Origin: Xiphias gladius
Lineage: Eukaryota > Chordata > Actinopteri > Istiophoriformes > Xiphiidae
NCBI RefSeq assembly: GCF_016859285.1
Contig: NC_053422.1
Location: 18,500,001 to 18,564,000, forward strand
Length of the DNA stretch: 64,000 bases
Direction of reading: 5' to 3'
Numbering within the stretch: position 1 is the first letter of the stretch; the number at the start of each line of letters is the position of its first letter. Below, in pieces: positions 53,201 to 59,200 of this stretch. Below the pieces are notes generated by a model. It made no database searches. It saw nothing but the letters and a program-made list of their open reading frames with translations, and was not told the origin of the DNA. A program made the position numbers and the translations under genes.

Positions 53201-56200
53201 AGGTACTTTACTTGAGTATTTCTAGTACATGCTACTTTATACTTCTACTCCACTTCAACTCAGAGGAAAATATTGTACTTTTTAACTCAAATACCTTTAC
53301 TTCACAAGTTTAGTTGCTGGCAGCTTTGTATATTGTATAAGTAAGATTTTACATACAAAGACCAACTTAATATCCACTTATATTGTGGATTGTTACAAAT
53401 TAAAATAGCAAACATAGCGAAAATGAGCTCCCCTTTGACCAAATATAGCTCTAAAATGCTGCTTACACATTAAGGCATTGGTGATAAGAGTCCAGTGACT
53501 GAATATATAATAATATAACACCCACAGGAACCATTTTGACACATTAAATACATTTTGCTGACGATACTGTTATTACTTTTCTTGAGCAAAAACTTGAGCA
53601 CAGGGCTTTTACTTGTACAGGAGTATTTTTATATTCAGATATTGCCACTTTCACTTAAGTAAAGGTTCTTTATATTTCTTCTACCACTGCAACAGTATGG
53701 CATATACAGTAATTATACCTAGCGCTGCGATAATGAGCCTCAAACATTATGTTTGCATAAATATTTTTTATAATAACTGAATATCATAATTCTTAAGCAA
53801 AGCTTAAAATGTGCTTTCAGATTGTTATCTTTGTTTTTGTCTATGATATGTTTGCTCTCGTTCTTTTCACATGTGTGATTGAAAGCTGCCCTGGAATGCC
53901 ATGTGTTTGTTCTCCATCAATTTTCACAGCTCCAGTGTTGGCACGCTCACCGCCTTTTACGACACTCTCATTTCTTTTGACACAAGTTCAACCAGGTACA
54001 GGAAAAAGAAAAGGATGAAAGAAGCAGATACCAATATGAACACGTTAGTGCCTCCAGCCTTAACAACATGGGATCTGATAATCTGAATTTATTTCCTCCC
54101 CAGTTTCAAGGATAATGAGCCTGAGCTGGCAAAAGAAGAAGGAGGCTCGGCAAACAGTCACACCACAGAGAACGGGTATAAAACCAACAACTCATTCCTG
54201 TCATAGTTGGGTTGGCAAGACAACAGATATTAACAAAATGCCACTGTGTTAACTTCATAGTAATCACAAAATAACCCACTACCTGACACAAGAGGGTGTC
54301 CCAAATTAGTCTTCATAAAAGACACACACACACACACACACACACACACACACACACACACACACACACACACACACACACACACACACACACACACACA
54401 CACACACACACACACACACACACACACACACACACACACACACACACACACACACACACACACACACACACACACACACACACACACACACACACACACA
54501 CACACACACACACACACACACACACACACACACACACACACACACACACACACACACACACACACACACACACACACACACACACACACACACACACACA
54601 CACACACACACACACACACACACACACACACACACACACACACACACACACACACACACACACACACACACACACACACACACACACACACACACACACA
54701 CACACACACACACACACACACACACACACACACACACACACACACACACACACACACACACACACACACACACACACACACACACACACACACACACACA
54801 CACACACACACACACACACACACACACACACACACACACACACACACACACACACACACACACACACACACACACACACACACACACACACACACACACA
54901 CACACACACACACACACACACACACACACACACACACACACACACACACACACACACACACACACACACACACACACACACACACACACACACACACACA
55001 CACACACACACACACACACACACACACACACACACACACACACACACACACACACACACACACACACACACACACACACACACACACACACACACACACA
55101 CACACACACACACACACACACACACACACACACACACACACACACACACACACACACACACACACACACACACACACACACACACACACACACACACACA
55201 CACACACACACACACACACACACACACACACACACACACACACACACACACACACACACACACACACACACACACACACACACACACACACACACACACA
55301 CACACACACACACACACACACACACACACACACACACACACACACACACACACACACACACACACACACACACACACACACACACACACACACACACACA
55401 CACACACACACACACACACACACACACACACACACACACACACACACACACACACACACACACACACACACACACACACACACACACACACACACACACA
55501 CACACACACACACACACACACACACACACACACACACACACACACACACACACACACACACACACACACACACACACACACACACACACACACACACACA
55601 CACACACACACACACACACACACACACACACACACACACACACACACACACACACACACACACACACACACACACACACACACACACACACACACACACA
55701 CACACACACACACACACACACACACACACACACACACACACACACACACACACACACACACACACACACACACACACACACACACACACACACACACACA
55801 CACACACACACACACACACACACACACACACACACACACACACACACACACACACACACACACACACACACACACACACACACACACACACACACACACA
55901 CACACACACACACACACACACACACACACACACACACACACACACACACACACACACACACACACACACACACACACACACACACACACACACACACACA
56001 CACACACACACACACACACACACACACACACACACACACACACACACACACACACACACACACACACACACACACACACACACACACACACACACACACA
56101 CACACACACACACACACACACACACACACACACACACACACACACACACACACACACACACACACACACACACACACACACACACACACACACACACACA

Positions 56201-59200
56201 CACACACACACACACACACACACACACACACACACACACACACACACACACACACACACACACACACACACACACACACACACACACACACACACACACA
56301 CACACACACACACACACACACACACACACACACACACACACACACACACACACACACACACACACACACACACACACACACACACACACACACACACACA
56401 CACACACACACACACACACACACACACACACACACACACACACACACACACACACACACACACACACACACACACACACACACACACACACACACACACA
56501 CACACACACACACACACACACACACACACACACACACACACACACACACACACAGACACACACACACACACACACACACACACACACAGAAAAAGTCTGT
56601 TACTATATTCAGATGGTTTTCATGCTTATTAAATAGTTCAGTGGATTTCAAGTTTTTCTAATGGAGTGGCGTTGTAAATAGTGTATGAGAAAAACCACAC
56701 TAACCTTTACTTGCCCTCTTTTCTCTTCCCATCATGCCATTCATGCCGTACCGCCCTCCTTACTCTTCTATCTTGCCCCCCTGCAGTGAAGAGGACAATG
56801 CAGATCCCTGGAGCTCACGTGGGACAACTACCGTCACTGAATCCAGGTAGTTAATTGACTGCCATGTCGTATATGGGCTATGCTTCAGAATGTCTGTGTT
56901 ACAGTGCATGTAATATGTAAGTAAATGTGTTTAAAAAATACTTTACTCCACTTACACTTAGTGAAAAAAAAATCTGATTTGCTCAAAAAATTGGATTCAA
57001 TTGTAAGATACATTCTCATTCCTGTAAGATATGAATTAAGTAGGAATAGGAAAAAAATTTCGTGTTTGTTACATATATGAAAACAGAATTGATAGTATTA
57101 AGTATTTGTTTAGTGTATAGATACTGACTGCAAACAGGATTCATTTTAACTGAAGAAAACCTGAAATACACAGACTTTTACCGGCAGCAGAATAGTCTTT
57201 CCATTGGTCAAATTCATCCAGATTGTAATTTTGATTGAGTCTGGCCCCGGGTTCCTCTGTGTTTCTGTTTACCATTCAAACTGCATTAAATCTTTCCATT
57301 ATGAGTCAATGTGATCAGAATTCCTCTGTTGTGTCAGAGGAATTCTGATGGGCCATGCTGACAATTGAGAGTGAAATCAGTGTGAAATTGTTTTTCAGCT
57401 CGACTGATCCGTTTGATCCATATCCGATAGGGACCACATCCCTTAACAGGTAATCATATTGGTTTGGAGCTATGACTGTTTTCCAGGCAGTCAGATAGCA
57501 TCCCGGCATGCATAATGCAGCAGTCTCTGATTATGAGCCATTTTTCTGTATTGCAGCTCCTCTGACCTGCTCCAGCCCCTTGCAGATATTTCCATCAACA
57601 GGTACAGGAGTGATACTGCAAAATCCTCTTTTTCTGTTTGTCGCATGTTACTACATAATATCCTTTTGACTACAACTGCCTCACTTTGTAAGTTATTGCG
57701 ATTATTATTATTCGTAATCAGCACCTAGCAATCCGCACTGTGATCACAGTTCATCTTATTGATATGCTTATGTCAGTTCCTTTATTTAATTTCTTCAGTG
57801 CACCAACCACTTCGATGGAGAACAAAGATCCAAGTCCAGAAATAAAGTAAATTAGTTGCACTTATCTAACCCTTTATCTGAAATTAAGCTAGAAATTAAG
57901 TAAAATTAGGCTTCAACCAACAATTATTTTCAGTATTGATTAATATGTTGATTCTTTTTTAGCAGTAGATTAGAGCTGAGATGATTAGAAAATCAGTCAA
58001 TTAGAAAGAAAATTAATTGGTAACAGTTTTGGTAATCCATTAATCATCATTGGTTCCAGATTTGAAATATGATGATTTCCTGCTTTTCTTTGTATTAAAT
58101 CATTGTATATTTGGATATTTTGGGGTTTTGGGCTATCACCTTAGGTCCTGAGAAATTGTCTTGTGCATTTTTCACTATTTTCTGACATTCAGTCGATAAA
58201 ACAAAGAATCGATTAATCGAGAAAATAATCTGCAAATTAACTGATTATGGAAATGGCCGTTAATTGCAGCCCAGCACTAAATTAATAATTTAGTATATAA
58301 AATATCAGAAACTAGTGAAAAATTCCTTATGCAATTTCCCATAGACTTCAGAGAGATGTCTTCAAATTGTTTTGTTTGACCAACAGCACAAAAAAGAATT
58401 CCAATTATAATGATATAAAATAGAGAAAAGCAGCAAACTTATATCCTTGAGAAAGTGGGACCAGAAATTGTTTGCCATTTTTACAATAAATCACTGATTT
58501 TCAACTAATTTATATCAACTGGTCATTTCAGCACTAAAATTTAAATTTCTTGATATACAATGTTACTGTGTCTTATGTCTTAAATTCTACTATATTTTTC
58601 CCCTTTTGTGTGTGTGTGTGTGTGTGTGTGTGTTTGACAGCATGAGCAGTAAAGCCCTGAAATCCCTTTCAGACGACGTCATCCCCATCAACACTGACAG
58701 CACAAGGTATTAAACCTAGGGCATAATTGTGTTATGAATGTGTGAGTGAGAGGAGGAGAGGAAAGGATGAAGAGTGTGGACCTGTAGAAATCAATTCCTC
58801 AGTCAGGCCTATATTACCAATGTCTGATATGCTTGATCTGTCACGACTTCTGCATCGTCTCTCTCACTCTCTCTCTCTCTCCACTTTGGCTCTTCAGTCT
58901 CAGCACTCAGCGGCAATGGGCACACACATGGGAATCCAGCGTGCCTCAGCCGACTAACACAGAAGAGAGGTGATGGCACACTTCGATTTACTCTTACACT
59001 TCCACACAATGCGGACAACTGCGTTTCATTTATCCAAACGCACCCCTCCCTGTCCATTACGTGCTAAAAGCCTTTCAATGTATGTCCCCTCTCAGCCAAG
59101 AGCCTGAAATGGAAGGCCAAGCTGAAGATCAACAGACGCTGATCATGTTTGAGAGAAAGTAAGTCATCTTTTTATTAAAAGCTCCGGGTGCATATCTGCT

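What the first reader, a model, noticed from the sequence alone, without database searches (positions are those of the whole stretch)
54322..56588. A nearly perfect CA repeat of about 1130 units inside a znf185 intron
CA tracts in fish are usually tens of units long, so one of 2.27 kb with a single interruption is extreme. In the pre-mRNA it would be a huge array of sites for CA-binding hnRNP L-type proteins, and on DNA it is a strong Z-DNA candidate. It sits between two small skippable exons. It may be a recent expansion or an assembly artefact.
Basis: partly seen in the sequence, partly recalled or inferred. Interest (0 to 1): 0.7.

Follow-up and report, generated by a model that had tools for sequence, protein, structure and literature searches.

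The report
Giant CA microsatellite in fish intron
An intron of a fish gene resembling znf185 carries an exceptionally long, nearly flawless run of the two-letter repeat CA (about 1130 copies), most likely an ordinary microsatellite that has expanded to an extreme size, whose true length still needs checking in raw reads.

Summary
In detail: window 54322-56588 is 2267 bp of AC repeat with one base out of pattern (G at 56555). Outside the tract, the longest pure dinucleotide run in the window is 25 units. The tract fills 87% of intron 13 (2611 nt) of a gene model that I built (28 coding exons, 881 aa, C-terminal LIM domain, downstream of nsdhl). That fits znf185, but the synteny is recalled. The 'two small skippable exons' are real but not special: exons 3-26 are all phase 2-2 and multiples of 3. 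The kind is known: dinucleotide tracts over 300 units are reported in 7 of 14 fish genomes, and one seabream has a 2475-bp AGG tract. Best reading: a runaway microsatellite expansion, tolerated because on the sense strand the tract holds no GT and one AG. An assembly error in length or purity cannot be excluded; I had no reads and no relatives. Most novel reading left open: the CA RNA pairs with a (UG)13 tract 7 nt before exon 18 and loops out exons 14-17 (204 nt, in frame). A strong curiosity of modest interest.

The parts
54322..56588 (+). CA microsatellite: A(CA)1116, G at 56555, (AC)16A; 2267 bp
56555..56555 (+). the only interruption (G where C is expected), 33 bp from the 3' unique flank; makes the only AG within the tract
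54176..56786 (+). intron 13 of the modelled znf185-like gene, 2611 nt, 344 nt without the tract; longest of 27 introns in the coding model
   Evidence: splice sites and open frame only, no transcript
54104..54175 (+). exon 13, 72 nt, phase 2-2; donor CGG|GTATAA, lowest score of 27 donors (exon 8 nearly equal)
56787..56846 (+). exon 14, 60 nt, phase 2-2
58607..58633 (+). (TG)13T tract in intron 17, ending 7 nt before exon 18; perfect complement of the CA tract
58641..58706 (+). exon 18, 66 nt, phase 2-2
50166..63456 (+). modelled znf185-like gene from the first coding exon (start codon at 50219) to the stop codon at 63454-63456; 28 coding exons, 881 aa, C-terminal LIM domain
44060..46320 (+). 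five 3' exons of nsdhl, the upstream neighbour
   Evidence: best chain 6jkg, E 2e-82

Best explanation
A (CA)n microsatellite in intron 13 of a teleost znf185-like gene that has expanded to about 1130 units by replication slippage and/or unequal exchange. The likely ancestor was an ordinary imperfect tract: the pure block 5' of the G interruption grew and the (AC)16 stub 3' of it did not. The tract is probably tolerated and nearly neutral, because the sense strand holds no GT and one AG, so it offers almost no cryptic splice sites, in an intron that otherwise is only 344 nt long. In the pre-mRNA it would be an unstructured array of hnRNP L/LL sites starting 146 nt after the weak donor of exon 13, so a mild effect on inclusion of exons 13/14 is possible. 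Shown: sequence, position, exon phases of the model, splice-dinucleotide content. Inferred: expansion history, tolerance, protein binding, splicing effect.
For: Pure single-unit array between unique flanks. One mismatch in 2267 bp where about 61 would be expected at the 97.3% mean identity of cod dinucleotide repeats. The interruption lies near one end, with the long side pure. Long dinucleotide tracts occur in fish: over 300 units in 7 of 14 genomes, and a 2475-bp AGG tract in a seabream. No GT and one AG in the tract. hnRNP L and LL prefer CA repeats (passages) and AC length associates with HNRNPL binding in human cortex (passages).
Against: Length and purity are unverified by reads. In human data very long dinucleotide alleles show a contraction bias (passages), which speaks against a stable giant allele. 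The 319-unit maximum of one fish genome makes 1116 units unusual. No orthologous locus was compared, so the ancestral length is unknown, and no transcript data bear on any splicing effect.
Confidence: 0.68

Rival explanations
1. Assembly or polishing artefact. Either an ordinary or moderately long CA tract was inflated in length, or a real kb-scale but imperfect tract had its interruptions smoothed away by consensus or short-read polishing.
For: Long dinucleotide tracts (AT, GA/TC) break human HiFi assemblies (passages of PMC10234299). The only interruption lies 33 bp from unique flank, where reads anchored in the flank could preserve it while the interior was smoothed (my inference). Purity is far above the cod mean.
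Against: The window has no N, and a 2.2-kb pure tract cannot simply be written across a gap without reads that contain it (inference). Comparable lengths are reported in other fish. The sequencing method is unknown to me, so neither side can be pressed.
Confidence: 0.25
2. Functional long-range RNA bridge. The CA tract pairs with the UG tract that abuts the exon 18 acceptor, brings the exon 13 donor to that acceptor, and promotes skipping of exons 14-17 (204 nt, 68 residues, in frame).
For: Perfect 27-bp complementarity; predicted duplex -51.6 kcal/mol against -31.2 for the best other sampled segment of the gene, with 1103 registers. The exon 13 donor scores lowest of 27 and the exon 18 acceptor ties for lowest pyrimidine content, 50%, of 28. 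The skip keeps the frame, 881 to 813 aa. [quoted passage not shown] 2016, which I could not open).
Against: In the known layout both repeats lie in one intron; here they lie in introns 13 and 17, and neither intron has a partner tract of 5 or more units. Acceptors 9 and 10 also have 50% pyrimidine, the longest pyrimidine run near acceptor 18 (7) is not among the lowest, and the exon 8 donor is about as weak (-1.33 against -1.40), so the splice-site signal is slight (donor frequencies recalled). The UG region also folds locally (-15.1 kcal/mol over 100 nt). hnRNP L on CA, TDP-43 on UG, or a pUG fold (PMC12962679, start of abstract) would compete. No RNA-seq.
Confidence: 0.06

Closest known systems
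Very long fish microsatellites (dinucleotide tracts over 300 units in 7 of 14 genomes, PMC8186053, section read; 825 AGG units, 2475 bp, in Acanthopagrus schlegelii, PMC10048070, passages)
   Same: Simple perfect or near-perfect tandem repeat in a fish genome; AC is the commonest fish dinucleotide and introns hold most dinucleotide repeats
   Different: 1116 pure units; well above the 319-unit maximum of Acanthopagrus latus, and I saw no AC tract over 1000 units in the listings and passages examined
Intronic CA repeats bound by hnRNP L (eNOS type; Hui et al. 2003, seen only as a reference)
   Same: CA on the sense strand of an intron, downstream of a donor
   Different: Well over ten times longer than an ordinary CA tract; binding and splicing effect not tested
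AC/GT repeat-bridged introns of zebrafish (Lin et al. 2016; seen only through a sentence in PMC9198270)
   Same: An AC tract downstream of a donor and a GT tract abutting an acceptor in the same pre-mRNA
   Different: The tracts are in introns 13 and 17, not at the two ends of one intron

Membership tests
Dinucleotide microsatellite | Head-to-tail copies of a 2-bp unit | tested here: met
   1133.5 copies, 99% matches, 0% indels
Dinucleotide microsatellite | Length instability or polymorphism among individuals | not testable with these tools
   No reads and no other individuals
hnRNP L-regulated intronic CA element | CA repeats on the transcribed sense strand in an intron | tested here: met
   Tract on + strand in intron 13 of a + strand gene model
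hnRNP L-regulated intronic CA element | Splicing changes on hnRNP L loss or repeat change | not testable with these tools
   No RNA data
AC/GT repeat-bridged intron | AC and GT tracts at opposite boundaries of the same intron | tested here: not met
   Among CA/TG tracts of 5 or more units, intron 13 has only CA and intron 17 only TG
ZNF185 (host gene) | C-terminal LIM domain | tested here: met
   Pfam LIM, E 8.2e-08, 32.8 bits over a cut-off of 22.9
ZNF185 (host gene) | Neighbour of NSDHL (synteny recalled from human Xq28) | tested here: met
   nsdhl exons 44060-46320, best chain 6jkg, E 2e-82; that synteny defines the gene is recalled
ZNF185 (host gene) | Sequence orthology to vertebrate ZNF185 rather than to its relative sciellin | not tested
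   No vertebrate protein collection was searched; the N-terminal 204 aa match no Pfam family; sciellin kinship is recalled

The most novel reading that the evidence does not exclude
A kb-scale CA tract serves as a length-tuned RNA landing strip: it pairs with the UG tract at the exon 18 acceptor, loops out exons 14-17, and makes repeat length a rheostat for an in-frame 68-residue deletion in a LIM protein. That would extend the known within-intron AC/GT bridge to a multi-exon bridge.
Probability: 0.06. Interest if true: 0.7.

Novelty: new member of a known kind. Interest (0 to 1): 0.33.

Why it matters
If length and purity hold in reads, this is a natural case for asking how far a dinucleotide tract can expand despite the reported contraction bias of long alleles, and how an intron tolerates over two thousand bases of hnRNP L sites. 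If it is an artefact, it warns that assemblies can report simple tracts with false length or purity. The chain of 24 same-phase exons would make any splicing effect easy to read out in transcript and protein length.

Tried and rejected
Own-genome count of other long CA tracts: asked six times, never answered, so I cannot say whether this genome has many such tracts. Vertebrate comparison: the sequence collections are described as viral, metagenomic, prokaryotic, phage, plasmid and E. coli, so I ran no orthologue search. RNA families: 0 matches at gathering thresholds in the window. Flanks as part of a repeated element: not seen within this window; apart from themselves, the 146-nt and 198-nt flanks give only 14-23 nt pieces (4 hits, E 0.085-0.30). 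Canonical AC/GT-bridged intron: rejected, as the tracts are in different introns. Skippability of the neighbouring exons as a special feature: rejected. Naming nsdhl from single open frames: of 10 frames given to Pfam (chosen from 198 frames of 65 or more residues), 4 matched something and 6 did not; the last nsdhl frame matched nothing in Pfam or PDB, while the joined exons did. A weak Pfam TSX match in the gene's C-terminal part is under its cut-off. Lin et al. 2016 is not held. PMC10234299 prints human tract sizes once as 300-6500 kbp and elsewhere as under 6 kbp, so I use only its statement that such tracts break assemblies. Paper searches for long fish dinucleotide tracts: 2 of 2 listed; 10 of 18; 15 of 80; 12 of 24; 8 of 8; for CA/UG pairing in splicing: 7 of 7; 10 of 10; 2 of 2. 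Z-DNA propensity was not computed.

Full report
Observation. The tract is exactly where stated: 54322-56588, 2267 bp, 1133.5 copies, 99% matches, 0% indels. Read base by base it is A(CA)1116, a G at 56555, and (AC)16A. The window has no N. A first-order chance model gives a longest AC run of about 4 units. The script listed 8 pure dinucleotide runs of 6 or more units: 2 belong to this tract, the other 6 have 7-25 units. The rest of the window has ordinary microsatellites.

Host gene. I built a model from splice sites and an open frame: 28 coding exons, 881 aa, start codon at 50219, stop at 63454-63456. It has no transcript support. The C-terminal exons encode a LIM domain (Pfam E 8.2e-08; LIM structures); the N-terminal 204 aa match no Pfam family. 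Upstream on the same strand lies nsdhl: its five joined 3' exons match chain 6jkg, sterol-4-alpha-carboxylate 3-dehydrogenase, E 2e-82 over 178 residues. A LIM protein beside NSDHL fits ZNF185. That synteny is recalled, and orthology was not tested. Exons 3-26, 24 in a row, are all phase 2-2 and multiples of 3, median 63 nt.

Intron 13. It is 2611 nt, the longest of 27 introns in the coding model (next 1026, median 191), and 87% of it is the tract; the rest is 344 nt. The tract begins 146 nt after the donor and ends 198 nt before the acceptor. On the sense strand it has no GT and one AG, made by the interruption, so it adds almost no cryptic splice sites. In the opposite orientation the units would supply GT throughout. 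I infer that this orientation helps its tolerance. The flanks are unique within the window.

How extreme. In Atlantic cod, an assembly unusually rich in tandem repeats, dinucleotide repeats average 84.4 +/- 87.2 bp at 97.3% identity (PMC5241972, passages). In blackhead seabream 91.37% of dinucleotide loci have 6-20 units and 99.84% are at most 86 bp, yet the longest simple repeat there is 825 AGG units, 2475 bp (PMC10048070, passages). In yellowfin seabream the maximum over all motifs is 319 units (PMC11672618, passages). A survey of 14 fish reports dinucleotide tracts over 300 units in 7 species, with no maximum given in the section I read (PMC8186053). The kind is therefore known and the size rare. 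The listings and the passages I read showed no AC tract over 1000 units in fish. Only parts of the longer listings were shown and supplements were not open to me, so this is no claim that none is published.

Age and purity. At cod's mean identity about 61 mismatches would be expected in 2267 bp; there is one. With an assumed 1e-8 substitutions per site per generation, no change in 2233 bp gives a 95% bound of about 134,000 generations; at 3e-9, about 448,000 (rates recalled). Slippage copying can purge interruptions, so this bounds the last homogenisation, not the origin. Against a stable giant allele, a contraction bias is reported for very long dinucleotide alleles in human germline data (PMC3583453, passages).

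Artefact. Length and purity carry separate risks. Long dinucleotide tracts (AT and GA/TC, not CA) break human HiFi assemblies (PMC10234299, passages). The only interruption sits 33 bp from unique flank, just where anchored short reads could preserve it while polishing smoothed the interior. That is inference; the sequencing method is unknown to me. I give 0.25 to a material error in length or purity. The own-genome search that would show how common such tracts are here did not complete.

Function. CA repeats are preferred sites of hnRNP L and LL (PMC3823766, passages), and AC length associates with HNRNPL binding among splicing-associated repeats in human cortex (PMC13174678, a preprint, passages). 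The donor of exon 13 has the lowest score of 27 (-1.40), though exon 8 is nearly equal (-1.33) and the score uses recalled base frequencies. A mild effect on exons 13/14 is plausible and unshown.

A second reading came from listing CA/TG tracts of 5 or more units from 48,000 onward. A (TG)13T tract ends 7 nt before exon 18, where a pyrimidine tract is usual. That acceptor ties with those of exons 9 and 10 for lowest pyrimidine content (50%) of 28, but its longest pyrimidine run (7) is not among the lowest. Pairing with the CA tract gives a predicted -51.6 kcal/mol, against -31.2 for the best other partner among 80-nt segments taken every 20 nt, leaving out the CA tract and the UG tract's surroundings; the UG region also folds locally at -15.1 over 100 nt. 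Skipping exons 14-17 stays in frame, 881 to 813 aa. [quoted passage not shown] The defining layout, both tracts in one intron, was tested and not met here, so this is only a 'works like' hypothesis, at 0.06. A pUG quadruplex of the UG tract is a possible competitor (PMC12962679, start of abstract in the listing). Searches listed no paper on a multi-exon CA/UG bridge.

Verdict. Its reality in reads, its rarity in its own genome and its effect on splicing are open.

Noticed in passing
window 52579-52981: Coding minisatellite inside exon 11 of the znf185-like gene (periods 30, 60 and 114 bp), encoding proline/serine-rich repeats such as PVSPVSESPAP.
   Followed up: partly
window 59537-59585: AGG/GAG run in exon 21 encodes a long glutamate stretch in the same protein.
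   Followed up: no
window 50721-61474: 24 consecutive internal exons (3-26) of the model are all phase 2-2 and multiples of 3, so any one or any block could be skipped in frame.
   Followed up: yes
window 58607-58633: (TG)13T stands 7 nt before the exon 18 acceptor, with 13 G, enough in number for the pUG fold described in PMC12962679 (abstract start).
   Followed up: partly
window 18622-19092 and 27438-27854: Plus-strand frames match TPR repeats (E 3e-19) and glycosyl transferase family 41 (E 6.6e-36), suggesting an ogt-like gene (the name is inferred).
   Followed up: no
window 38301-38726: Weak rhodopsin-family receptor match (7tm_1, E 0.0043, under its cut-off) on the plus strand.
   Followed up: no
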